A DNA stretch of 64,000 nt from Henricia sp. BOLD:AAB3569 (Eukaryota > Echinodermata > Asteroidea > Spinulosida > Echinasteridae), in assembly GCA_037783545.1 (NCBI GenBank), contig JBBELK010000164.1, forward strand, positions 806,001 through 870,000, read 5' to 3'. The notes beneath the pieces were generated by a model. It was not told the origin of the DNA, ran no database searches, and was given only the letters and a program-made list of their open reading frames with translations. This document shows positions 2,180 to 63,268 of this stretch, one piece after another. The position numbers and the translations under genes were made by a program. How positions within the stretch are numbered: position 1 is the stretch's first letter; every line of letters begins with the position of its first letter.

Positions 2180-2301
2180 TCTGGTATGGTGCCTTGAATT
2201 ACCATTGAAATGAAACAACCAAACTTCTAAGGGCCTTATCGGGATTTTAACCCAAGACCTCTGACTCACTAGGCAGACGCTCTACCAGCTGAGCATAAGG
2301 C
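2180..2301 (-). mobile_element. tRNA-derived SINE fragment
   Basis: On the minus strand, 2301-2233 folds as a near-complete tRNA cloverleaf. There is a perfect 7-bp acceptor stem (GCCTTAT with ATAAGGC) and a D-arm GCTC/GAGC with an A-box-like AGCTGGTAGAGC. The T-arm is degraded (GGGTTAAAATCCC). The body continues with the AACAACCAAACTT and ATTTCAATGG blocks also seen at 40975-41075 and 47370-47480. This suggests a dispersed SINE rather than a functional tRNA gene. Confidence 0.65.
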
Positions 2302-2771
2302 ACAGTTGGTATGTACTCCCTCAGGTTTTCCCTCAGCACCCAATTTTTCTCTCAGTGTTGCATGGTGGCGCAACTGGGCAAAGTGATGAAAATACGCAGT
2401 GATTAAAAAAAACGTCTTTAAAAAAAATAAATAACATGCTAATCATCATTGATGAAAATCAATGTATAAAGTTTTTTTAATTTTACAAAAAATCTCCAAA
2501 CTTTGATGCTGAGACGTCGCCCCTTTTCCAAAAAGTGGTATGAGAATGTAGCCCTCTGGACCTCTCTTGAACATTGATCAGTCTCAAATTTCTATTAATC
2601 CAGCTCCACATTTTCTGGTTTTTTTTTCCAGATCCATTTACTTAAGAGTGTGAAACAAGGTCTGCAGAAAGGTAATTTTTGTTTTCATTTTTCCCTAGAT
2701 GTTTACGTTTAGTGCATGGGAGTGCTGTAATACTTAAGTTCATCAAAACTTCTAATGAACTCGACTTGCAC

Positions 2772-3022: not shown

Positions 3023-4127
3023 ACACTGGTACGCTACATAAGACTACATAAGACTTTGTCATTGAAAGGATATCATTTCCAGAAAGTGTTTTCACTGCCA
3101 TGATGTTGATTTTCTTGCTCCTTAGATGTTAAAACATTTCAGGAGTACTACCAAGCAGCGATGCAAACATTTACTATTTAGGCTTAACATGTATACATTT
3201 TTTTCCAGCCAATTACTTTATGTATTGTGATCTAATTATTGCAATGCTCAAATTTGGGATTTTCTAAGGGTTTATTAATTTGGTGTAATTTTTGAAATTT
3301 CTTGTCTAAGACGGGTGCCCTGCGGCAAATTACTCTTTCGCTGTGCAATGTTGGCATCACTGTACAAGTATGATTTTTTAACTTGTGGGATAAGCCACCT
3401 GCATGTACATGCCATTGTATTGACCAGACATTTCTGTCATCAGACAAGATAGCAAGGGACGGGGCAGATGAGCCTCCCTCGTCTTTCTTTTCCTTTGGTG
3501 TCTCTCAAACGAGACGAGGCTCCCCGAGAAAGTGGCCGGGGGACCCTGTGGGATTCTAGCCGGGAGGAAACCCCAATTTGCGGAGTTTCTCCCAGTTGAA
3601 AGGTTCAATTTCAGCTGCTCCGAGTGATTTCCTGTCATCTTTTTACGTCTCGTCTTTCCTGATGGTTCAGGGTTTTCGCCGTTGAGTGCGGCCCTTGATG
3701 TCAAATGTCTTGGTCTGATCTTGTCAGTTTTTTCTTCTTCAAGTCTGTATGGGAAATGGTTGAGTCACTGAGTGTGGTTTTATCTGCCCTGGAGCGACTC
3801 ATCTTCATATCTCTACATGTACACTCATCAAGTGTCTACGTACACTCTTGTACTTATGTGTGTCCTACTGTACGTACACGTAATCACTGCATAACATTTG
3901 TACTGTACTCGTGCAGCAGTTTTGCACATATGCTCAATGTAAATCCCATCATGTCACTTACACGTGAACCTCACGTAGCATGTCAAGTTGTCAACAACAT
4001 TGAAGTGTAGCAGTTACATGTGGAAGGCAGTGTTCTGAGGAATTGCTCAAATCTCTCGTGTTGAAATTGTTTACAACACTACATGTATGTGCCACCTGCT
4101 GTGAAAGGTTAGTGTATACATGTACGT

Positions 4128-16300: not shown

Positions 16301-19300
16301 AAAGACAAGACCCTCAAGGGTGCCAAGTTGAAGAAACGCAAGCGCAAGGGATCAGAGAAGGTCGAGGACTCCTCGACTGGTGGCGATGAAGTCTCGGAGA
16401 AGAAGACCAAAAGATTGGCTCCTAACTTCTTTGTGGCTATTCAGGTCTCCAATCCAGTGGTAAGTAGGTCCTCATTCATGTCACGAAGCCCTACGATCCT
16501 CAGAGCTGCCAACCCTCCCGGATTTTGGGGAGGACATCTGGGTTAACAGGTTCATTCCGTGACTCCAAACACATATATAAATCCCTAAGATTGTTAATTG
16601 ACAATCCAGGAGGGTTTTTATCCATGTCAGGACTCAAAAAATTAGTAATTTTTCGAAGAATATGTTGCAAAATCCGGGAGGGTTGGCAGCTCTGAATCCT
16701 TTGTAACTCGAGATGCACGTTAGTCGAGATGCATGTTGATGCAACTGAAGTAGAACTAAATGCCTTGCTCTTTACAAAAAAAAATACAATCCACTTTGTT
16801 CTTGGTGTCGTCAGGATTTTTAGGGTCGCAGATACAAGTCGAAAAGACACCAAGGCAAAATTTATGTGAAGCATTAATTTGCTTATCAGGAGTCGTCCAG
16901 AGTTGTCAACAGTTTCATGGTTCTACAAAGCGTATGAAGGTGGCGGGAGGGGGAGTAAAATGTTGACACTTAATGGTACTGACAGAAACAATTTTGGGGG
17001 TGGGGGGTGTCTTGAAAAATACTACTCTCTGTACTACTGTGAAAATGTTGACAACTGTGGACGGCACCTACGTGATGACATTAATTGAAATGGGCATGCA
17101 GCGCAATTTATTAACTGTTCGTCTGACATTTTTTGTCTTCAAATTCCCTCAATACAGATCCACGAAGCGTTAAAAGATGTCCAACAGACAGTCGTGACTG
17201 GCGATGAAAAATTAAAAGATGCCATGGTTCCCATAGCAACAATGCATCTTACTATCATGGTCATGCACTTAGCAACTGATAAGGATGTGGAAAGGTTAGT
17301 TATTAAGGTTTATTATTAGACACTGTCTTCCAATACCTTAAAATAAATCTTCCACATTGTCCATTTATAATCATTCTATATGTGTCAGACGTTGGGAGAA
17401 TAGAGCCTTTGCACGGCGGTAATGGCAGGGGGCAGTCACATTGTCATCATGTGTCATGCATGAGTAGGTGTTTTGTGGTTCTATTGTTATCTCATTTAAA
17501 TAAGAAAACCTGCCCCCTGTCATGGCCGCCGGTGCAGAAGCTCTATTGGCAGTTCAGTAGCTGTTGGCTTGATGAACACTCGTGCACTTGTAAGGACTTG
17601 CAGGGCCTTGCAAATGTCTTGTAGGGGCCTTATTGATTGCAACACTGGGTGGAATAATATGTCCACAAAATGAGTACTCATGGACTTGTTAAGACTTGTC
17701 AGGCCTTGAAAAAGTCTCGTGGTAGCCGCAATTGCATTACTAGGAACAATAGCATGTCCACAAAATGAACACCTATGGATTTGCAAGGACTTGTAGGGCC
17801 TTGCAATAAACCTTTATCACAGTGCGTCCATCTTTGTCTTGTTCCCCATAGTACGTGTCGGGCACGTTCAGTGCGTCTGCGCTACCGTGCGATAGCGCGT
17901 GCAATCTCGTTTTGAGAATCAATGTCCACGCTGTGCGCTCTCTTGATCGCGCAACGCCTGTGCCATTGTGTTGCACACAACGAACAATTTTAAAACGGGA
18001 CCAAACTATTTTTTCTGCAAGCCTCGCTTTGGTTAGGTTCATTTTAATAGGAGAAAAAGGAAGATGGGCGCACCGTGATGAAGGTCTATAGTCTTGCAGT
18101 GGCCTTGATTGGAACACTGGGAGCGAGACAATTAGTATGTCCATAAAATGAAAACCCGTGGGCTTGTAAAAGAACTTGCTGGGCCTTTTGTACCAGGCTT
18201 GACTACAACACTACATGTAGCCTCTTTGTATTTTGTCTTTTTCCGCCCAGGGCCAAAGTTGCACTCAATGAATGCCATCGAATACTCGGCCCATCTTTCT
18301 CCAAGGACAAACTAAGCATTCTATTTGGCGGCCTGGGACACTTTAACAATCAGGTCATGTTTGCCAAGATTAAAGATCAGGACAGTATCTTGGAGAGTTT
18401 GTATCAGATAGCAGGTGAGGAAAAGCTCAACCAGTTTCTTCTGTAAATGTTTGTTTACAAACATGACAGACATTTTGTTTACAAAAACATCTCTTGTTTT
18501 CAAACCACCAGACACCGTGGAGAAGTGCTTCTCTGAATACCAGCTGGTCTCGACCGGCGAGCGCGGCTTCAAGCCTCACCTGACCGTCATGAAACTCTCG
18601 AGGGCGCCGAGTCTTCGCAAAAAGGGCGTACGCAGGATTAAGTCTGAGCTGTATAAGGCACATAGCAGCCAAGTGTTTGGTATGCAGGTTGTAGACGGCT
18701 TGCAGTTGTGCTCGATTAATAAGCCTAAGACGCCTGATGGGTATTACTACAAGGCGGCTGAGGTCATGTTTGGGGAGCCAAGTGAGTTAAATTTGTAATA
18801 ACTTAATGAAATTAAAATAAATTTATATGGGGTCGTAGTAAAATTTTGACCAGATAAAGGTTCAATGATTATTTTGGGCACCTAGGGGTATTGTGTACAT
18901 TCATTTTGCACATGCATCTATAGACTATAAACACCAGCAATAATCTTTAGTGTCGGCCGAACAATTGGGCTGAGAGTCCAACATTTTTCAAAACTCCTGT
19001 CCCTATGTTAAAAACGTGATATTACCTGGACTACTACCATATACTTCTTCCTTCTCTTTCCCTCCTCCCGCTCCCCCTTTTTTTCAATTTTAGGGGCTCG
19101 CTATACACCAATCCGGTAATAAGGTCTCCTTCCCTGTACATCCGCCATAGCTGGGGGGCTTCCACTGAATGAACTGTATGTTTTTGTTGTTGCTGAAGCT
19201 GCATTTGTTTACTTCGAACAAGTTGCGCGTCTTTGTAGGGTTGTGTGCGCGCGAAGGCGGGCGCGTCGCGTATACGCGAAGGAGGCTCGTTCGTGCATGT

Positions 19301-20515
19301 AATGGATGAGCGCTTTTCGTTATAACAGCACTGGACGCCCCCCAGCTATGGCGGATATGCAGGGAGGAGATCTTAGTTACCGGATTGGTGTATAGCCCCC
19401 TCCTGATCTGCCAAAACCCTGTATCCTTTAATCACTTTGTACTGTTTTTCTGTGTAATTCATACAGCCTGCAGACCAGACAGGGAGATGCACACAATAGC
19501 AGAGACTGAAGAAATGTCTGTGGACTCGGGTAAGTGAAGTTTGCCTCATTTTTTGACTCGCGAATTATTGTCCAATTTTTAGTCCATTGAAGTGTTATGA
19601 TGTGTTATCATACCAACAACGGACTAGGCTTGGGCGACTCCGATTCCAAAAGAGAATCGCGATTCCATTCGAAATCGATTCCACTTTTCACAAGAAAGTT
19701 AATGGTATAATTATTTTGGGCCCTCAGTAGTTAGAAAATAAGTAGCTGTGAGCTTAAACCAAGATCTCTTCACAACACTGTTTTTTTTTATTGCAATATT
19801 AGAAACGCCTCAAACACCGTGTTCGAATAGTGCCCTTGGAAGTGAAAAACAAACGGGTTTAAGTAACGGCGCGTGTGACTCTGAAACGACTGTCAATGGT
19901 TCGGTGGAGTGCAATGTTTCAATGACACTTGGGGGTGTTTCTGAGAACTCCGATTTTAAGCATTCAACACCGATTCACAAAGTGTGTGATAGACCAACAA
20001 ATGATGTTGAAAGCTTGTCGGATAATGCTATGTCTGGTGATGCAACGCTAGACGCGTCGTGTGATACAGCGATAGATAAATCATGTGACACGTCACGTGT
20101 TACAACTCTGAATACGTCGCATGATTTGACCAGAGAACCGTCACGTGACACGGCCCTTGGCACTTCGTGTGAAACTTCCAACGCCAACTTTAGTGACACA
20201 AGCACTGATACATCATGTGGCGCTACCCACGGAAAAAGTAGCAGTGTGATCTTGGATAAATGTATGAACACACCCACGGACAAACCTAGTGACGCGTGCT
20301 ATCCTACACATAGTGGGGAAACTCAGAAACCGTCGAATATCACTGCCAGTGATGTTAGAAGTAACGTCACAGACAGCGAATCTTGCGGTGTTAGCGACAA
20401 CGCATCTTGTGCCTTGACGAAAAGACCATCTCCAAAACTTGTCGAATCGGAAGTCGTGAAACCGTCAACGGAACCACAAAATGGGAGTGTTGAAAATACT
20501 TCTACCAGCGATTGA
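10310..20515 (+). CDS. AKAP7-like: AKAP7-like nuclear 2H phosphoesterase with long low-complexity N-terminus
   Basis: The coding exons I read are 10310-11032, 12448-12943, 15021-15095, 16287-16459, 17158-17294, 18251-18414, 18512-18781, 19467-19529 and 19803-20515. All have GT-AG introns and matching phases, and they close at 937 aa plus TGA. The first exon starts after a strong acceptor at 10199; an in-frame TGA at 10226 supports ATG 10310. Residues about 1-200 are His/Asn/Gly/Tyr-rich with RGG-like repeats and two LEWD-x-Y motifs. A basic KLKKRKRK stretch lies at about 445-452. Residues about 476-680 form the AKAP7 NLS/2H domain, with its paired H-x-T motifs at H519-L-T521 and H612-L-T614. 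In vertebrates this domain binds AMP and can cleave 2',5'-oligoadenylate (family knowledge). The C-terminal exon is Ser/Thr/Asp/Cys-rich. I see no classic PKA-binding amphipathic helix at the C-terminus. LENG9, which shares the domain, is the alternative name. The 2H core is certain; the join to the first two exons is inferred from phase. Confidence 0.8.
11346..11417 (+). repeat. C-rich polypyrimidine minisatellite
   Basis: About six imperfect copies of a CCCCGCCCCCCTC-type unit lie in the first coding intron of the AKAP7-like gene. The complementary strand has many runs of four to six G, so a G-quadruplex or i-motif is plausible. Confidence 0.85.
11738..11957. mobile_element. Tc1/mariner-type MITE with TA duplication
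   Basis: It is bounded by CAGTTGAAGTCAGAAGTATA at 11740 and the inverse, ending CTTCTGACTTCAACTG, at 11955. A TA dinucleotide directly flanks each end. The terminal sequence resembles the ends of vertebrate Tc1-like transposons (CAGTTGAAGTC...). At 216 bp with no frame it is non-autonomous. It sits in an intron of the AKAP7-like gene. Confidence 0.85.
13177..14003 (+). CDS. candidate extra exon of the AKAP7-like gene, frame-disrupted
   Basis: A long open stretch at 13371-14003 ends at a canonical donor (G then GTGAGT at 14004). It leaves phase 1, exactly the phase needed to join the next exon at 15021. Its composition (IDEDGCSVTLDPITG, basic KKQASKRK, Ser/Thr-rich tail) looks coding. Upstream, protein-like sequence continues from about 13217 in another frame, and the two frames meet at a run of eight A at 13381-13388. 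A one-base difference in that run would make them continuous. No convincing acceptor in the right phase is visible; the AGs at 13214, 13250 and 13271 are in the wrong phase and the one ending at 13216 is weak. It could be a cassette exon with a sequencing error, an alternative exon, or a decaying exon. Confidence 0.45.
14098..14575 (+). repeat. tandem repeat, about 185-bp unit, 2.5 copies
   Basis: Each unit carries a TTTCACAAAG-like start, a TCTTATCTTGG block, GGGAATTAGGACGCATTGAACTC and TAGTTGATAATTTGTACTAA. Two full copies and one truncated copy lie in tandem in an intron of the AKAP7-like gene. A dispersed single copy of the core is at 29490-29610. Confidence 0.75.
14739..14877. mobile_element. 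near-perfect hairpin element with TAGACC ends
   Basis: Both arms of about 60 bp are almost identical inverted copies (TAGACCATATCGCAAATCG ... CGATTTGCGATATGGTCTA) around a short GAAAATGGGG centre. The high arm identity suggests relatively recent activity or gene conversion between arms. Confidence 0.85.
16500..16694. mobile_element. foldback element with CAGAGCTGCCAACCCTCC ends
   Basis: It begins CAGAGCTGCCAACCCTCCCG and ends with the inverse, CGGGAGGGTTGGCAGCTCTG. It lies 41 bp inside the intron after the exon ending at 16459. A half copy (AATCCGGGAGG) occurs at about 42520. Confidence 0.75.
17401..17546. mobile_element. TAGAGC...GCACCGGCGGCCATG MITE, copy 1
   Basis: Terminal inverted repeats of about 35 bp (TAGAGCCTTTGCACGGCGG ... 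CCGCCGGTGCAGAAGCTCTA) enclose a CATTTAAAT-containing centre. Related copies are at 30570-30719 (inverted, nested in a SINE) and 57581-57725. Confidence 0.8.
17560..18215 (+). repeat. cluster of degenerate GGACTTGCAGGGCCTTG repeats
   Basis: Blocks such as AAGGACTTGCAGGGCCTTGC and ATGTCCACAAAATGA recur at about 17590, 17690, 17785 and 18165. They are interrupted by a CpG-rich insert at about 17822-18085. Single copies of the core occur at about 28720, 43410 and 61050. All sit in introns. Confidence 0.6.
19093..19400. mobile_element. foldback element with CTATACACCAATCCGG ends
   Basis: The left GGGGCTCGCTATACACCAAT and the right ATTGGTGTATAGCCCCC are inverted copies, followed inside by a CCGCCATAGCTGGGGGGC / GCCCCCCAGCTATGGCGG pair. 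The loop is strikingly CpG-rich compared with its AT-rich surroundings. Confidence 0.8.
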
Positions 20516-22065: not shown

Positions 22066-23812
22066 GATTGTGCCTAAGCTAGCAGATATAAGTTAGTATG
22101 GTAACTAAGTTTCTCTATATTCTTCCAGCCAATCAGAGTACAGAAGGCTACATTTCACAAGCCAATCAAATTGCAGATTTTACTTGCCAGTACCAGTTTC
22201 TTGTAACACATGGGATTGTACTACATGTAGATTAAACCCAGAAGGTACTTAATTATGGAATCGTGCAGTGAGAGTTGAAGCAAAATGTACACAAGCTGCA
22301 GTCGGCCAGTGATCCTTTTTCTACATTTCCACTTCAAAATGTATAAATTTTAGCCATGGTATTTAGTGTGCTTCATGGTTAAATAGATCCTAATCTTGTT
22401 AAAAACAACCAGATTAAAGGTTTTTGGTATTGTTATATTACACGGTAAAATGTTGCAATATATATTATTTATAACGAAGTTAACAAATGTATCCTTTGAT
22501 ATGGTTTTATTTGCTTTCGTATGTTTATTATGACTTCATAGTGCCTTAATAGCGCTATTAGATTATGAATTATGCCATTAAATACGAAAGGCTTTGAAAA
22601 TAATTGCATTTTTTTTGTATTTTATTGTGTTTTTAAAGTGTTTTGATGTTTTAGGCATCTAAGCAGTGAACCAATTCCAGCTAAAGTACGGTAAGTAAGC
22701 TTCTGTTTTGTCTTTTTTTACAAAGTTGCGGGGTGGGGTTGACCTGTTGGTCGCCCCTGTGCGTCATGGTTGGGGGATGGGTCCGGTGCAGGCCCGATCG
22801 CTATAAGGAGACCGGAGGTGTGGGGGAAGAGGTGAGCTGCCGCACATGCTCCCATACCTGATGCATATTTAGCAGTGTTGGAGTGAAATCACAGGTCTGT
22901 CACAAGAAATGAAGAATGGCAAAACAGGGTCCATGTGAGTGGTCTGGTGTCTTTTTGTTGTGGGGACGATTTCCACCGAAAAATGCGTAGAGCAAAACAC
23001 ACATTGGGATATATGTATGACCCTTTTAAATCAGATTGGGGTAAAATAGTTGTTCCACTGGCAAAAACCACATACTATTTTAATAATGAATATTTCATTA
23101 AAATACAAAACCTGTCTCAGTTCAGAGTGTCTTTATTTTGTCAAATCCAAATAAAGAAAAACACCAAAAAGTTGGTCGATTATAAAAATGTAATTTGTTC
23201 AATTAAAGCACAGAAATTTTGATCCAATACTCCAGGTTTAACATACATATTACAGGGGTGTGATTTGTTCCGGTATAATCTTTGTCACAAGCCAATGAGA
23301 CGAAAGAAAGTTTGGGGAAAAACCGGAATAATCACATCCCTGATATTGCCAGCATTCTACCAATTTAGCCTAGCCACCCCTTTGAGACTAAACCCTGGAT
23401 TACACCCAGCAGTTGGTGAAATCAGGATTTTCAAATTCAGCAACATTTTTTAATTATTAATAGCTAATTTGGTTAAAAAACTAGAAACGCCACACACAAA
23501 ATAGTTCACATAAATAATGTGTATACATGTATATATTAACATACTATAATACAGCTTAAAATCTTTAAAAGAACTAGTTCAGCATACCAAACAGTGCAAC
23601 AAAAACAGCAGTCAAACATTTGTTCTGGAAGAAAATATACAAAATTTGATCTGTTTATTTACAAAAGTAAGATCAGAAAACTTGAAAATCCATATTCATC
23701 CTTTTTGAGGTTCATTTTATATAGCACACGGAATGTATAATACAAAGCTTATACCAACTGAGTTGGTGTTGTCCCAAAAGTCAACTATTAGTCTCGTGAT
23801 GTACATGTACCA

Positions 23813-36800: not shown

Positions 36801-39800
36801 CAATCTAAGGAGGAAAAAAATTATCTTTTGATATGAAAATCAAAAATGGTTGGTTTCTGCAGCAGTACTTTCCTCACCTTCCTCTGTGGCCCTGGTTCGA
36901 ATCCCATCTGGGTCAGTATGTGGCTTGGATTGTCACTTTTGTCAGTCACCGTTTGATTTCATTGGTTTCCCCCTTACATGTGTGCAGGGTTTTTCCCTCC
37001 CACCTCTAAAACTAAGCATTTCTTTCATCTTCTCTTCACAGGTTTCTTCAGGCTTACGAGCTACAGTGCCTTGGGCACTTTTGAGGAATCCTTGGATTCA
37101 GTACCAGAAAATGTTCAAATGCTCTTCTTTTTTTTTTAGGCAAGTTTTACTCAAGCATATTTAGTTCTGAGTTACAGATAACATTTGATGTGGTGCTTAA
37201 TCACCCCAAATATACAAAGATTGTACCTTGAGTAAAACCAGAGACAGCAACACTGCTGTGCCTCATAGTGTGGCCGGTAAAGCATCTACATGTAGCTGCT
37301 CAATATACCAGAGGTCTCAGGTTCAAGTCCCAAACAAGACCATACAATATCCATTCTAGTTGGTAATATCAGAATTGGCACATTACCTCAACCTGGGAGA
37401 CCATCTTGGCAAGACGGTATTCCAAGTATGAATCACTCTGCAGGAATGCTGGGAGTCTCTCTTCCTTAATCCATTGGATGCCTTGTTCCTTGTTTAAACA
37501 CTGTCAAGCGAAAAGGTAAAAAACACGAAAACCAATTACTAATTTCCCAGTGTTGTCCAGAAGCGCCGGCTGCCGACGATTTCACCGGCTACTCTGTCAT
37601 TTGCTGCCGGCCACTTTTTTGATTTTACAAAAGAAATCTTGTTTATTCCCTAAAGTACCAGAATTACTTTCAAATCTTGTGTACACAACCGACTACTCAT
37701 TTTTTTTCACTCGTTACTCCAAAATATCTGAACAACACTGATTTCTACTCAAATATATTACATATAATGACACAGCATTTATAAGGCGCACAGTATCTAA
37801 CTGTATCTATCTAATTAAAAGGTGCCGAGGCAATCATTATCGCTGCCCTTATGACTGAAATCACAAGAACCATTTAGCTTCAACTAGGTGGCTGCCTGGT
37901 CAGTGGTGCCGACCCTATCAGCACTTGATTGTGGCATTCCCCAAATATCGCTTGGGTCGACGAGGCAATTGAGATCAAGTGCCTTGCCCAGAGACACAGA
38001 CACGTTGGCCGTAGTGGGGCTTGAACCCACGACCTCCTGATTGCGAGTTCCGCTTCATACCCACTAGACTACACCCGAGCACGCTTTTATGTTTTTCTCA
38101 GTGTCTTTGGGAAGCACTGAGTATGCAGTGCTAATAAATTTATGTTGGGTAAGGCAAAACGAACCCTAATTAATACAATTTTCAAGACGATCATTTTCAA
38201 AAAAATTAAATACCTGGACCATAAAGCTCGTCTTAATATCAAAGTCTTCTTCGGTGTACTGAGGCTCCGTTGTTGGTAATTTGGCTCCCGGTGGTAGCTT
38301 GGACATTATGAACCTCTTGGTGGCGCTGTAGATAGGCTTCGGTTTCTGTTGGGAGCGAAGCAGTGATCTGATCTTCTCCTTCAGGGCTTGTTTGGCCGAT
38401 GACACCACCTCAAATCCTCCCTTCTCACGGTTGAAGAGAAGAGGTTCTGGGAATGTCTGCAAAAATAATTGGTAAAATTGTATTATTAGTTTCAAATTCA
38501 AAACAGTAATGAGCCGCATAGCAAGCCACAGACTGAAAACCACAACAATAAGATGCAGCTTCAAGTCACAGCCACAATCAGCAAGCCGTAAGTCACAAGC
38601 CATGTTATAATTACATCACTGTTAGACGTCACAAATGTATTATGATAAAGGCATTTTGTCATTTCTTATAGTTTGCAACTTTGGTAATTTTTCCCTTTGT
38701 AATATCACTTATTTGCTTACTGGTTTTAAAAAGGCACAACTGTTTAAAGGAAAATACCGAGCTAAAAACTTTCAAAAAGAAACAATTGATGAGAACAAAA
38801 TCAACTTACAGGAAGCTGAAGAAATGAGTTGAAGTAGTCAACAAACATATCGTCAGTTGCCAGAAAATCCTCCTGGGATCAGAAAAATAACAGGAAATTC
38901 AGTTAATAAAATGTCCTTCCATGTACATTAATAGTGATGAAATACCCTTGAGAAAAGAACATTATTTATATTATGTAAATTCTTATAATTGTAGTTCCTA
39001 TTTGATCAACTGGCACCATCATTGTCAATGATTAAACATAATAAATTAAAATAAAATTATCCATACTCCTGGATTATTTTTCGATTTGTTGTAATCCTTT
39101 TCATGTAATTTTTACATTGTCACGGACAGTATTTTTGGTATTTACCAGGAAAAGTCTGAACAACAGATATGGGAAAACGGAGTATTTCAGCCGATTTCTT
39201 CTTTTTTTGCTTGTGCTTTTCCTCTTTTTTCTGTCTCTTTTTAATGCAAAAACTAGGTGGTTTCCTTTTTTCTAATGTGGGTGGCTTCTTATTTCCTTTG
39301 TTTTTTATCATTTACTTCTCATATCCCGGAGTATATTGCCCTCTAATGAGCAATCAAAATTTCTCCGTAATGACAAAATAAGGAATTAGCCTACGGCATT
39401 TTCTACGAAATTTGTACAGAATCAAACCATCGAACGAGAACGTGACCACAAGCTATTACTTCAAGATCGCACCATGCATTACTACGTACTTAGCCGCAGT
39501 CCAAGGCCACGCATTTCCATGAAATATTGATTTTATCGTCATTTCAGCAAAGCCCATTGCACGCACTAATTGCTGCTTTCAGTGTGCATAAATGATGTCC
39601 AAAATTTGCCTGTTGCTGAGAAACTGGATATCTAGTACGTGTATGTAATTATGAGCTAGTATTAAGGCACGCGTATAATTGCTGCATGCTTTTTTAAAGG
39701 ATACTTCCTTTGAACTACGAATGCGCAATAATACATCACAAATTCACTTTATCATATTTAGCACTTAAAATAATCATGATATGGTATTCCACAGACAGTA

Positions 39801-56020: not shown

Positions 56021-59000
56021 ATGTCGTCTTGCGAGAAAGATGTGCTAAAAATTGGCAAGCAGATAGATAAACTCCTAAAAGACGATACGGTAGGTAGTCC
56101 AAACCCGATTGTCATTCGTTTGTTTTCTTTTTCCTACGTACCTCCATGCTGTGACGTATGACATGCATGAGAAAGTTCGGGCGGGCTAACCATAGTCGAT
56201 CTAGATGTCACCCGAAAGCTGCGTGGTTTGACTAGCTAGTCTGACTAGCATGACTAGAGGAACCAAGCCCTGGGGGTAGCAGTGAGGACTTAAACTCCTA
56301 AAAGGGATAAATTCTCCCCTTCTGGCGAATTCTCCCAATCGGGAGACAATTGTATCAGAACATATGGCTTCAGAACACATGAGCTCAGTGATGCAGACGC
56401 TTTACAATATACAATCCTGCGACCATAGGAGAAATACAGGCATAAAATCTACAATAATCATCATGAAAACCTTGCCATCTTTAGGCACAGACCACAAATT
56501 ACACCAGAAACGATTGTCTTTGGTGCTAAATTGTCGGCGAAAAGCAAAATATACATAGATTTTCAATGTTTTTTTTGCGAAACTTACCTCGCTTTGCCCA
56601 ATTCCGTTTTAGCTAATTCTATGCATGCTCAAATGAGCAAATACGTGCGCAAATGGTTCAGAAGAATATCATTCTCCCGATCGGGTGAAAATCTCTGCAT
56701 CGAGGGAAAAAAACTTCTCCCGATTGGGAGAATTCCCCAGAAGGGGAGAATTTCTCCATTTCGGGAGTTTGAGTCCTCACTGTGTATAGGGGGACGCAAC
56801 TTTACCGGAAGTTCCGGTTCTGTGACACATTCCATGATGTTTGGCACTTGTTTTGGTTTCTTTAGAATAATGCAGATGCGACGGATCTTCTCAGTAGACT
56901 AAAAGAGCTCCCTATCACCTTGGAAATTCTACAGGTAATTAATTGGTGGTCTAAACTTGAAAGTCTCGATTCTTAATTTATGAAAATTTGAAGTCGCTCT
57001 TATCAGATGTGTTTTCATTTTATGACGTAATGAGGGGTCTCTCTTTGCCAGAGAGTTCATGGAACTGGGTCTTTCCACAGTAAAGGGGGCAGTTTGGCAA
57101 CACAGACCATATTTTCGAGAAAATAATTTCCATTATACGCTCGTAACCGGGACGGACACTTGTGTTACATTTTAGGCCGTCCCGGTTACGAGCGTACATT
57201 GGACATTTTTACACAGGGTTTTTAGAAAGGCATGTTGTCACACTATTTGTAACCCTTTTTTGGCCTAAGTTATCTCTTCAGAACAACTGAAACTTATTTC
57301 TCTTATTTTGAGACCAGACAAGGGTATTTTCTTGAAAATATGGTCTGTGTTGCCGAAATGCCCCTTTACTGTGGAAAGACTCGCCTAAAATTATTGTAAA
57401 TTTTATTCGTTCAAATAATGTAGATTTTATTTGGTTCCTTCTTGCTACTGTAGAAAACCAGGATCGGTATGTCAGTGAATTTCCTCCGTAAACAGAGCAG
57501 CAATGATGAAATCAACACACTGGCCAAGTCACTCATTAAAGCCTGGAAGAAGCTCTTGCCTGCACAAGGTGAACTAGGAATAGACCTTATGCGTAGCGGC
57601 CATGATAGAGGGCAGTCACATTGTCACAGTGCATCAGGCACGAGTAGGCACATTGTGAAGCTATTGTCACATCATTTAAATATGAAAACCTGTCCTCTAT
57701 CATGGCCGCTACGCATAAGGTCTATTTCTTTTTTTAACCTCTTCATGGCAGGAAACTTAAAATTAACTCCTTGTCGTGAATTTATTTTATATATTTACCA
57801 AGGATGTCCCCAAAAAGTGGACTAGAACTGGTTTCCATTGGAGCCTTGTAAACACTCATAAAACAATAAAATAATACCTATATAAATTAAATAACTTTAC
57901 AATCGTATTAACAAGCACAAACTGGAACAAGATACTGCATTAAAAATCGCTAAACGACATTCACGTCGACATGCCACAGTAAGGTTGACAAAAACTAAAG
58001 TTTCACGCCTCGGGGGGTGGTCTGTACTACCAGGACAGAGCTGGTCTCTCAACTTGCTGGCTTGGGCTCAAGTCAGTGTGTATGCCTTGGGGTGGTTATA
58101 CAGAATTAGCTGGGTCAGTACTACCAGGGAAGAGATGGTCTCTCAACTTGCTGGCTTGGGGCTCAAGTCGGTGTGTATGCCTTGGGGGTGGTTATACAGA
58201 ATTAGCTGGGTCAGTACTACCAGGGAAGAGCTGGTCTCTCTACTTGGTGGCTTGGGCTCAAGTCAGTGTGTATGCCTTGGGGTGGTTATACAGAATTAGC
58301 TGGGTCAGTACTACCAGGGCAGAGCTGGGCTCTCAACTTGCTGGCTTGGGCTCTCAACTTGCTGGCTTGGGCTCAAGTCAGTGTGTATGCCTTGGGGTGG
58401 TTATACAGAATTAGCTGGGTCGGTACTACCAGGGCAGAGCTGGTCTCTCAACTTGCTGGCTTGGGCTCAAGTCAGTGTGTATGCCTTGGGGTGGTTATAC
58501 AGAATTAGCTGGGTCAGTACTACCAGGGCAGAGCTGGGCTCTCAACTTGCTGGCTTGGGCTCAAGTCAGTGTGTATGCCTTGAGGGTGGTTATACAGAAT
58601 TAGCTGGGTCAGTAGTACCAGGGCAGAGCTGGTCTCTCAACTTGCTGGCTTGGGCTCAAGTCAGTGTGTATGCCTGTTGGGTTGGTTATACAGAATTAGC
58701 TGGGTCAGTACTACCAGGGCAGAGCTGGTCTCTCAACTTGCTGGCTTGGGCTCAAGTCAGTGTGTATGCCTTGGGGTGGTTATACAGAATTAGCTGGGTC
58801 AGTACTACCAGGGCAGAGCTGGGCTCTCAACTTGCTGGCTTGGGCTCAAGTCAGTGTGTATGCCTTGGGGTAGTTATACAGAATTAGCTGGGTCCGTACT
58901 ACCAGGACAGGGCTGGTCTCTCAACTTGCTGGCTTGGGCTCAAGTCAGTGTGTATGCCTTGGGGTGGTTATACAGAATTAGCTGGGTCAGTACTACCAGG

Positions 59001-62000
59001 GCAGAGCTGGGCTCTCAACTTGCTGGCTTGGGCTCAAGTCGGTGTGTATGCCTTGGGGTGGTTATACAGAATTAGCTGGGTCAGTACTACCAGGGCAGAG
59101 CTGGGCTCTCAACTTGCTGGCTTGGGCTCTCAACTTGCTGGCTTGGGCTCAAGTCAGTGTGTATGCCTTGAGGGTGGTTATACAGAATTAGCTGGGTCAG
59201 TACTACCAGGGCAGAGCTGGTCTCTCAACTTGCTGGCTTGGGCTCAAGTCAGTGTGTATGCCTTGGGGTGGTTATACAGAATTAGCTGGGTCAGTACTAC
59301 CAGGGCAGAGCTGGGCTCTCAACTTGCTGGCTTGGGCTCAAGTCGGTGTGTATGCCTTGGGGTGGTTATACAGAATTAGCTGGGTCAGTACTACCAGGGC
59401 AGAGCTGGGCTCTCAACTTGCTGGCTTGGGCTCTCAACTTGCTGGCTTGGGCTCAAGTCAGTGTGTATGCCTTGGGGTGGTTATACAGAATTAGCTGGGT
59501 CTGTACTACCAGGGCAGAGCTGGGCTCTCAACTTGCTGGCTCGGGCTCAAGTCAGTGTGTATGCCTTGGGGTGGTTATACAGAATTAGCTGGGTCAGTAC
59601 TACCAGGGCAGAGCTGGTCTCTCAACTTGCTTGCTTGGGTTCAAGTCAGTGTGTATGCCTTGGGGGTGGTTATACAGAATTAGCTGGGTCAGTACTACCA
59701 GGGCAGAGCTGGTCTCTCAACTTGCTGGCTTGGGCTCAAGTCAGTGTGTATGCCTTGAGGGTGGTTATACAGAATTAGCTGGGTCAGTAGTACCAGGTCA
59801 GAGCTGGTCTCTCAACTTGCTGGCTTGGGCTCAAGTCAGTGTGTATGCCTTGGGGTGGTTATACAGAATTAGCTGGGTCAGTACTACCAGGGCAGAGCTG
59901 GGCTCTCAACTTGCTGGCTTGGGCTCAAGTCAGTGTGTATGCCTTGGGGTGGTTATACAGAATTAGCTGGGTCAGTACTACCAGGGCAGAGCTGGTCTCT
60001 CAACTTGCTGGCTTGGGCGGAAGTGAGGGTTTTTGTTTTTGACTTGTGAAATAAAACTGATTTACTTCTTGTTATGCAAGTATGTTTTATATTTCTTTGT
60101 TTTTTTTACCAGCACCAAACAAATCTAGCAATTCTCAGAAAGAAAAGAAAGACAGTGGCGACGATTCTCGAGAACCCTCCCCTCCTCTGCCGAATGGTAG
60201 CGGCGATAATGGAAAAAGCACAAATACCGAGAAAACTAAAAGTTCCTCTTCGGTTGTTAGGACAAATGACTCTGTCCGGGAGAAATGTGCGGAGATGATT
60301 GCTGCAGCTCTTAAAGTATCTAGTAAGTAGCAAAAGTGTTACTGAGATCTTAAATTGCCACTTCGCTCCAAAACCACTTCGTACACAGGCCGTGGTTCAG
60401 GGCGAAATGGTTCAGGGCGAAGTGGTTTTGGGGCAAAATGACTGCAAACCCTTTTTTGACTGATTTCTCAAAAGTTAGACGACGTACGGAGCTGGTTTTT
60501 GCTCAGGTTGGTTTTAATCATGCATATCTTCAATCACACAGGGGGATAAAACTATATGTAACAGTTTACCAATTATGTATACTATCTTTAAAGGTCTATG
60601 TATCATTTGCAAGATAAAACTTTTTACAGATTCATGGAATAAGAGTGTAACATATCTAAGGAAGAATGTTTGTAAACTAGCCTGAAGAAATTTTAGCTAC
60701 CTAGAAGCATCAGTGCTTCAGAAAACCTTGAAAACCTATCAAGAGCCTCGGAATAGATTTATCTAGATAGATGGCGCTATACAAGTGTGTATTATTATAT
60801 ATTTCATGGAGACCGTAACTTTAAGCACTGCCAAACGTTTGCTAGCTTCAGTGACGCAACAATGCCAGTTTCCAAGCACGCCCATGCTTAAGCACGCCGC
60901 GGCCGTGAAATAGCCTTAAAGTTAGCACAACTTTTCTGCTACAGTAAGCACACGTTTTCTGCTAGCGCTTAAGCAGCGCCATGAAATTGGCCCCAGGTCT
61001 TGTTTGGTTTAGATGTAGTTTGTTTGAATAGATTGTGCTGTAACAAACACACACGGACTTGTGAGGACTTGCAGGGCCTCGTGGTGGTTTTGCGTCATGG
61101 CCTGAATCTGTCTACTTGAATATTTTACCAACTTTTCTTGTTGTGTTTTATTAACAGTTGAAGGCTGTGATCACTCGGAGCTCGGTGACGCTGCTGGAAT
61201 TTCTGCAGAAATTGAAGATTATATCCTTTGACATTTTCAGATCAAGCTCATCACACCCAAGTTTGATGACTTGTAAACTGACACCATATTAAAAATTAAA
61301 AATCCAGGGTGCCCCAACCGAAAATGTTGACCCCTTTGGACGGCCCCTAAATGATCTATACGATTAGCCTCATGCCATTAAAATCCCACTCATAAATTAA
61401 ATTGTGACCATGCTCCTTAACTCGTAACACGTATCTACAACGAGTTTTCAGGCACAGACTTAAAATACAAGAACCGCGTCCGGAGTCGTGTATCGAATCT
61501 GAAAGACAGCAGCAACCCTGAGCTTAGGAAGAGGGTCCTGACAGGTGAAATAACGCCAGATAAAATCGCTAAGATGACCTCGGAGGTAAGTGACTAAGTC
61601 CTCAAGATTAGCTGCCAAAGGCTTTCGAATTCTAATTGTGCAAGATATTGTGCAAGATATTGTGCGAGATATTGCATGAAATTACCTTGAAAGTGATGTG
61701 TGATCACATGCAAATTGGCATGTAGTGTGACCAGATGTGTTTCCAGTTTATTATTCTTTATGGTAAAAATGTTTTGACAGGAAATGGCCAGTAAAGAACT
61801 AAAAAACATACGGGATAACATCACGAAAGTGGCAATTCAGGAACACCAGATGGCTGTTACTGGGGGAACCAAGACGGATCTACTCCAATGCGGCAAATGC
61901 CACAAGAGGAACTGCTCCTACAACCAGGTATAATTTGAACCCCCCAACCTTATTCTCTTTTTCCGCCTCATGCCCAGGGATGGTCTTGTACTGTATACTC

Positions 62001-63268
62001 GGTGCTTTCCCGAGACACTATAAAAAACTTCATAGCGTGCTCGGGTGGGACTCGAACCCACAACCTTCTGCATACAAGGCAGACGTCTTAACCACTTGAC
62101 CACCGAGCTAGCCGGTGTTGAATGGCCGGTTTGAATCATTTTGCAATGAGGATCGCAATTATATTAATATTCAGAGTGAAACTTGGTGGTTTTTTTTTAA
62201 GCGTATAGTTTTTAGGTTTTAATCAAGTCTTGGATTTTTTTCCTAATTTGTATCAACAGGTGCAAACAAGGAGTGCAGATGAACCAATGACGACGTTCTG
62301 TTACTGCCATGAATGTGGAAAACGGTGGAAGGTGGGTATGAGTTTCGAACTGTACACAAAATACAATGGCAAATTTATAAAGTGGTAAATTGGCAAATAT
62401 ATTGAGTTCAGAAAGGCTTTGAGATAAATATGGTTGAAGACAAATGGCATTATCTCCATGTGTGATTGAAACAAACCTGTGTATAAATCAGCTCAGTACC
62501 TCATCTACGTTCTAAGAAAACAATGAAACTCTCCGTGCTTTCAAGAAATTGTGCAAAGCCACCGTCCTATTTGGGTTGTTTTGCCAGCTATACATACTAC
62601 ACTAAAAAACAGCCAAAATACATCATTAGTCAGGGGCCTAATGCATAGTTCCGACCTGTCAATCAAGCCGAACCCGCGACCAATCACAACAGAGCTAGCA
62701 GACATCGCCCACAAAGGTCAAAGTGATGCAATCATCACAAACAATCCGCGATGTTCTGCCCATACAGTTTGTATGTTGTATGCGCCATTGACCGGGTGAA
62801 TTTTGGTTTCAATGTCGGGGGATTCGCTGTTCAAAGGTAGGAAAGCGCATTTTTATGAAAGATATGTCATCCCTGCAATACTAGCCCTTCGCTCAGTGAG
62901 TGCTACGGTAACTGTCGACCTCAAAACATAAATACCTTTGGGTTTTCTCCAATGAATCTGTGCTTTCCATGCTGAGTCCCGTTGCTTTGTACGTAGTCTC
63001 GCCATTTTTTTGCGATGGCTTGTGAGCACATAGCAACAATATCCAAGGGGGCGGGGTTAACTGGGCAATCTCGGAACTATGCATTCGGGGGCGTCCTTGT
63101 AAACAAAATGTGTGCACATTAAGTTTACCATGTTTACTATTGACAACATTTAAAGATTACTGTGTACAAGAAGGTTTAAAAAAAGTTACCATGAAATCTC
63201 TCTCTCAAAAACAAAAAAGCCTAGTATAATATTATCTGTTTTTTTTCTTCATTCTACAGTTCTGTTGA
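56021..63268 (+). CDS. TCEA1: TCEA1, transcription elongation factor TFIIS
   Basis: The exons are 56021-56089, 56866-56934, 57454-57568, 60113-60322, 61158-61220, 61431-61585, 61781-61927, 62260-62331 and 63260-63268; they total 909 nt (302 aa; human 301). Residues 1-80 are the helical N-terminal domain ([30 protein letters not shown]). A Ser-rich linker follows. Domain II begins about 133 ([13 protein letters not shown]) and runs to about 250. The C-terminal zinc ribbon uses C264, C267, C292 and C295 and carries the acidic hairpin D283-E284 ([10 protein letters not shown]), which inserts into RNA polymerase II to trigger cleavage of backtracked RNA (family knowledge). The intron 61221-61430 is AT-AC; the last exon encodes only FC-stop. 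All key residues are present, so the gene looks functional. Confidence 0.96.
57070..57381. mobile_element. foldback element with TCTTTCCACAGTAAAGG ends
   Basis: GTCTTTCCACAGTAAAGGGG is mirrored by CCCCTTTACTGTGGAAAGAC. The inner pair is GCTCGTAACCGGGACG / CGTCCCGGTTACGAGC. A divergent half-element lies at about 4365-4480. It is in TCEA1 intron 2. Confidence 0.8.
57581..57725. mobile_element. TAGACC...GCGGCCATGATAGAGG MITE, copy 3
   Basis: TAGACCTTATGCGTAGCGGC and GCCGCTACGCATAAGGTCTA are perfect inverted ends, with a CATTTAAAT centre like the copy at 17401. It begins 12 bp inside TCEA1 intron 3, directly after the exon 57568 donor. Confidence 0.85.
58010..60020 (+). repeat. 94-bp minisatellite array, about 20 copies
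   Basis: The unit runs from GGTTATACAGAATTAGCTGG through AGTACTACCAGG and CTCTCAACTTGCTGGCTTGG to GTGTGTATGCCTTGGGGT. Some units are 115 bp because the 21-bp CTCTCAACTTGCTGGCTTGG block is doubled, giving a higher-order pattern. Copies are highly similar. It fills most of TCEA1 intron 3 and ends about 90 bp before exon 60113. The unit length is not a multiple of three, so the apparent frames rotate; it is non-coding. Confidence 0.95.
60359..60600 (+). repeat. dispersed repeat shared with 27361-27590
   Basis: It matches the RGS22 intron copy over ACAGGCCGTGGTTCA, CTGCAAACCC, GGAGCTGGTTTTTGCTCAGG and ACTATCTTTAAAGG. It also has local inverted CAAAACCACTTCG / CGAAGTGGTTTTG blocks at its left end. 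Confidence 0.75.
60845..60996. mobile_element. half of the GGCCCCAATTTCAT foldback element
   Basis: It shares AAGCACGCC, GGCCGTGAAATAGCCTTAA and GTTAGCACAACTTTTCTGCT with the right half of 7164-7450, and ends GCGCCATGAAATTGGCCCC. The left arm is missing. Confidence 0.7.
61221..61430 (+). other. TCEA1: U12-type AT-AC intron of TCEA1
   Basis: The donor is ATATCCTTTG directly after GAAGATT, the U12 AT-AC consensus. The branch site TCCTTAAC is at 61414-61421, 10 nt before the terminal AC at 61429-61430. Joining T to GT-ATC gives [16 protein letters not shown], which fits the family alignment. A decoy GT-AG style acceptor (TTTTCAG at about 61445-61451) would drop seven conserved residues and has no matching donor. 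Confidence 0.95.
62037..62109 (-). tRNA. tRNA-like sequence, Thr (TGT) type
   Basis: On the minus strand, 73 nt fold as a cloverleaf. Acceptor AGCTCGG pairs with CCGAGCA except the first pair, the D-stem is GTC/GAC, and the anticodon stem TCTGC/GCAGA has loop CTTGTAT (anticodon TGT). The T-arm is GTGGG-TTCGAGT-CCCAC. It lies in a TCEA1 intron, antisense. The A-A mismatch at the first pair and the many tRNA-derived SINEs nearby mean it may be a SINE head or pseudogene rather than a working tRNA. Confidence 0.5.

What the first reader, a model, noticed from the sequence alone, without database searches (positions are those of the whole stretch)
61221..61430. U12-type AT-AC intron in TCEA1
Seen: donor ATATCCTTT, branch TCCTTAAC, terminal AC, exact phase and correct protein across the junction. 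Known: TFIIS genes in vertebrates are among the classic AT-AC intron carriers. Its presence here shows the minor spliceosome is used in this lineage and that the intron is ancient. A GT-AG-only gene predictor would misannotate this exon pair.
Basis: partly seen in the sequence, partly recalled or inferred. Interest (0 to 1): 0.7.

Follow-up and report, generated by a model that had tools for sequence, protein, structure and literature searches.

The report
Minor-class AT-AC intron in TFIIS gene
One intron of an animal gene for a transcription helper protein carries the uncommon but well-known AT...AC end signals that are cut by the cell's second, minor splicing machine; it is a clear example of a known thing rather than a surprise.

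Summary
Window 61221-61430 is a 210-nt phase-1 intron: donor ATATCCTTT, branch site TCCTTAAC, terminal AC. It is intron 5 of a nine-exon TFIIS gene (CDS 56021-63268, +) coding for 302 aa with the three TFIIS domains; the other seven introns are GT-AG. Of 447 end pairs tried at this place, this one gives the best protein; the best GT-AG pair costs 19 residues. The strict joint motif occurs once; simulations gave 0.025 per 64 kb.

The same genome (740.7 Mb) holds a full-length U6atac gene (138 bits, E 2.5e-35) whose AAAGGA can pair with intron positions +4 to +9. U12, U11 and U4atac patterns gave no match, but these searches are weak. No RNA evidence was available.

Corrections: one TFIIS locus was found, so 'TCEA1' is better called TFIIS; and neither the intron's age nor the statement about vertebrate TFIIS genes could be tested: no vertebrate gene could be fetched, and passages and listings seen did not mention it.

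Verdict: real, ordinary, new member of a known kind.

The parts
56021..56089 (+). TFIIS coding exon 1 (ATG in ACCACCATG)
   Evidence: exact 3' end is the best of five models that keep the frame, chosen by similarity to human TCEA1
56866..56934 (+). TFIIS coding exon 2
57454..57568 (+). TFIIS coding exon 3
60113..60322 (+). TFIIS coding exon 4
61158..61220 (+). TFIIS coding exon 5, upstream of the AT-AC intron
61221..61430 (+). U12-type AT-AC intron, 210 nt, phase 1
61221..61229 (+). U12-type donor ATATCCTTT; positions +4 to +9 complementary to AAAGGA of this genome's U6atac
61414..61421 (+). U12-type branch site TCCTTAAC; presumed branch A at 61420 (or 61419), 10-11 nt before the intron's last base
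61429..61430 (+). terminal AC (3' splice site)
61431..61585 (+). TFIIS coding exon 6, downstream of the AT-AC intron
61781..61927 (+). TFIIS coding exon 7
62260..62331 (+). TFIIS coding exon 8
63260..63268 (+). TFIIS coding exon 9 (FC, stop TGA)

Best explanation
Window 61221-61430 is intron 5 of a nuclear TFIIS gene and is a minor-class (U12-type) AT-AC intron. Shown here: the donor, branch and 3' end letters, the exact reading frame across the junction, and a U6atac gene in the same genome that can pair with the donor. Inferred from established knowledge: U11 and later U6atac pair with the donor, U12 pairs with TCCTTAAC and bulges the branch A, and the minor spliceosome joins 61220 to 61431, while the other seven introns, all GT-AG, go through the major spliceosome.
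For: Full 302-aa protein with Med26/TFIIS-N, TFIIS_M and zinc-ribbon domains, E 1.7e-94 to human TCEA1. The AT-AC junction is the best of 447 end pairs. Joint motif once against 0.025 expected. Full-length U6atac, 138 bits against a gathering score of 33, found by an exact 25-base match with 0 matches of the reversed control pattern; AAAGGA pairs with intron +4 to +9. The branch A lies 10-11 nt from the intron's end; a review passage gives 11-13 nt as optimum and lack of a polypyrimidine tract as typical (PMC3584512, passages); TCGTAACAC follows the branch site, with no pyrimidine run. Phase 1 fits the bias against phase 0 among U12-type introns (PMC7367187, passages).
Against: No RNA data. 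The second contig with the same locus is letter-identical here (444 of 444), so it is not independent evidence. The -1 base of the donor is T and the branch site has C rather than T two places before CTT (consensus recalled as TTCCTTRAC), a small departure.
Confidence: 0.95

Rival explanations
1. It is an AT-AC intron cut by the major (U2) spliceosome, as some AT-AC introns are.
For: Major AT-AC introns exist (PMC8280824 passages speak of 85 in human), and end letters alone do not tell the class (PMC3584512 passage).
Against: The donor matches ATATCCTTT over nine bases and the branch site matches TCCTTAAC, which define the U12 class; no pyrimidine tract; U6atac present.
Confidence: 0.03
2. A GT-AG or GC-AG pair is used instead, giving a protein with a shorter central domain (best GT-AG 61185-61451, best GC-AG 61205-61444).
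For: Both keep the frame open; TTTTCAG at 61445-61451 looks like an ordinary acceptor.
Against: They remove 19 and 10 residues that align to human TCEA1, and score 370 and 377 against 406; they would leave the perfect U12 donor and branch site unexplained.
Confidence: 0.02
3. The motif match is chance inside an intron whose true ends lie elsewhere, or the locus is a pseudogene or assembly error.
For: Single motifs occur by chance in the window.
Against: Joint motif 0.025 expected, protein open over 302 codons with all domains; same letters on a second contig.
Confidence: 0.01

Closest known systems
U12-type AT-AC (minor) introns of animals
   Same: Donor, branch site, branch-to-end distance, AT-AC ends, non-zero phase, one such intron among GT-AG introns of an information-processing gene.
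   Different: Nothing that was tested differs in kind; splicing itself was not tested.
AT-AC intron of vertebrate TFIIS genes (recalled: Xenopus TFIIS.oA; vertebrate TCEA genes)
   Same: Same gene family and same intron class, if the recollection is right.
   Different: Position and sequence could not be compared; no vertebrate gene sequence was available and the papers that I recall for it are not held.

Membership tests
U12-type (minor) intron, AT-AC subtype | donor [AG]TATCCTT(T) | tested here: met
   ATATCCTTT at 61221-61229
U12-type (minor) intron, AT-AC subtype | branch site TCCTTRAC close to the 3' end (optimum 11-13 nt, PMC3584512) | tested here: met
   TCCTTAAC at 61414-61421, A to last base 10-11 nt
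U12-type (minor) intron, AT-AC subtype | no polypyrimidine tract before the 3' splice site | tested here: met
   TCGTAACAC follows the branch site (read directly)
U12-type (minor) intron, AT-AC subtype | ends at the exact coding junction | tested here: met
   best of 447 pairs, phase 1
U12-type (minor) intron, AT-AC subtype | U6atac gene in the genome | tested here: met
   1 locus, full length, 138 bits, E 2.5e-35
U12-type (minor) intron, AT-AC subtype | U12, U11 and U4atac genes in the genome | tested here: inconclusive
   0 matches of recalled human-based patterns and of an Rfam search without working control; later forms of the U12 and U11 patterns and a CENATAC family search did not complete
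U12-type (minor) intron, AT-AC subtype | excision by the minor spliceosome | not testable with these tools
   needs RNA reads or snRNA block
TFIIS (TCEA) | N-terminal helical bundle, central TFIIS_M domain and C-terminal zinc ribbon | tested here: met
   PF08711 64.9 bits, PF07500 125.4 bits, PF01096 62.7 bits
TCEA1 proper rather than TCEA2 or TCEA3 | groups with vertebrate TCEA1 against TCEA2 and TCEA3 in a tree | not tested
   no full set of vertebrate TFIIS proteins at hand; one TFIIS locus found here points to a gene older than the vertebrate split

The most novel reading that the evidence does not exclude
The AT-AC intron may act as a switch: when the minor spliceosome is limiting, either the intron is kept (stop at codon 179) or the in-frame GT-AG pair 61185-61451 is used, giving a TFIIS that lacks 19 residues of its central domain, so that Pol II rescue would be tied to minor-spliceosome activity.
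Probability: 0.05. Interest if true: 0.45.

Novelty: new member of a known kind. Interest (0 to 1): 0.15.

Why it matters
It gives one well-supported minor intron and a full U6atac gene for this genome, enough to say that the minor spliceosome is probably in use, and a concrete place where a GT-AG-only gene predictor would produce a wrong TFIIS protein. It does not change what is known about minor introns.

Tried and rejected
Rejected: GT-AG and GC-AG choices; alternative terminal AC at 61427-61428, which breaks the frame (61428 does not appear among the 12 best in-frame pairs); a second U12 intron in the window (four other RTATCCTTT matches, none with a strict branch site within 1 kb).

Led nowhere: Rfam U12 family search of the genome; recalled U12, U4atac and U11 (0 matches, 3 of the reversed control) patterns; literature searches for TFIIS or TCEA1 with AT-AC, U12-type or minor spliceosome, which gave 0 papers, a broader one that listed 30 of 100 papers, none with 'TCEA', and one on TCEA1/2/3 with U12. 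The two papers that hold 'TFIIS' have it only in their reference lists (passages). In six papers on minor introns the words TCEA and TFIIS do not occur (passages); TCEA is absent from two more (TFIIS was not asked there). In PMC4506483 TCEA3 did not occur in the main text searched. Five further papers were not held. Pfam on ten open frames from neighbouring genes gave one hit, AKAP7_NLS.

No spliced retrocopy of the gene showed up: none of the 21 matches runs cleanly across the junction; the direct search for the spliced junction did not complete.

Full report
What was checked. The finding places an AT-AC intron at 61221-61430. The sequence there reads as described: ATATCCTTT at 61221-61229, TCCTTAAC at 61414-61421 and AC at 61429-61430.

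The gene. I rebuilt the whole coding region by hand from the window: nine exons, 56021-56089, 56866-56934, 57454-57568, 60113-60322, 61158-61220, 61431-61585, 61781-61927, 62260-62331 and 63260-63268, together 909 nt and 302 aa. Five models that differ only at the first intron keep the frame; I took the one most like human TCEA1. The protein matches human TCEA1 over residues 3-302 at E 1.7e-94 and carries the three Pfam domains of TFIIS. Introns 1-4 and 6-8 are GT-AG; intron 5 alone is AT-AC, phase 1.

Is it more than chance? The single motifs are not impressive in 64 kb: RTATCCTTT occurs five times against 1.43 expected, and the branch pattern followed loosely by AC once against 2.64 expected. 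The strict combination occurs once, here, against a mean of 0.025 in 200 simulated sequences (that script records the first AC after the branch site, 61428, the true end being 61430). The strongest argument is the protein: of 447 end pairs tried between 61165 and 61500, 32 left an open frame, and 61221-61430 gave the highest score to the human segment, 406; the next was another AT-AC pair at 395, the best GC-AG 377 and the best GT-AG (61185-61451) 370, which costs 19 residues. Keeping the intron brings a stop at codon 179; skipping exon 5 keeps the frame (281 aa), skipping exon 6 does not.

The machinery. The window lies in an assembly of 740,731,340 bases in 2,104 contigs, at C164:806001-870000. 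A 25-base U6atac pattern found exactly one place, with no mismatch and no match of the reversed control; Rfam's U6atac model fits it over its full length, 138 bits, E 2.5e-35, ending in a run of T. Its AAAGGA (positions 11-16) is the perfect complement of intron positions +4 to +9. Searches for U12, U4atac and U11 with patterns recalled from the human RNAs gave nothing, and an Rfam U12 search gave nothing either, with only 44 of 89,056 candidates scored and no control genome ringing. I read these as failures of the searches rather than absence, since U6atac has no known use outside the minor spliceosome (recalled), but the point is open.

Copies. The TFIIS protein search gave 21 matches: nine on C164, nine on C1230 and three weak ones elsewhere that fit single TFIIS-like domains by their query range. 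C1230 carries the same locus, 99.4% alike over 6,056 columns and letter-identical (444 of 444) from the start of exon 5 to beyond exon 6; most likely it is the other haplotype, though a recent duplication is not excluded. It adds no independent evidence. So one TFIIS locus was found, which makes the label TCEA1 too narrow.

Known or new. Passages of a review state the class marks used here: donor and branch site, lack of a polypyrimidine tract, a branch-to-end optimum of 11-13 nt (PMC3584512). About 22-24% of human and mouse minor introns are AT-AC (PMC6717393, passage), and phase 0 is under-represented among U12-type introns (PMC7367187, passages). High conservation of minor introns among vertebrates is stated in PMC10639083 (passage). 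The organism was not identified.

Verdict. It is an ordinary member of a known class, with added value from the U6atac gene. Interest 0.15.

Noticed in passing
G000 C164:872367-872755 (L010 about 3367-3755), outside the window, 3.1 kb after the TFIIS stop codon: A 133-bp copy of window 61362-61494 (end of the AT-AC intron with branch site and AC, plus the first 64 nt of exon 6; about 98% alike) is fused to a 265-bp copy of the gene's 3' flank (C164:870164-870428) and runs into about 1.5 kb of a roughly 60-bp tandem repeat; the same arrangement is on C1230. It looks like a local shuffled duplication or a fragment capture by a mobile element.
   Followed up: partly
58019-60018: A 94-bp minisatellite of about 2 kb fills most of TFIIS intron 3; the two contigs align poorly only around it.
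   Followed up: no
62037-62109: A tRNA-Thr (anticodon TGT) gene or tRNA-derived copy, antisense inside TFIIS intron 7; 62.7 bits in Rfam. A weaker tRNA match lies at 2231-2302, minus strand (33.8 bits; not called by ARAGORN).
   Followed up: no
57120-57200 and 57580-57730: Two short foldback (inverted-repeat) sequences in and before TFIIS intron 3, as of small mobile elements (read; inverted matches).
   Followed up: no
18415-18795: Open frame with an AKAP7 2'5' RNA ligase-like domain (E 4e-11).
   Followed up: no
3065-3073 (-), 19421-19429 (+), 22489-22497 (+), 39696-39704 (-): Four further RTATCCTTT sequences, more than shuffles give (5 in all against 1.43), without a strict U12 branch site within 1 kb.
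   Followed up: partly
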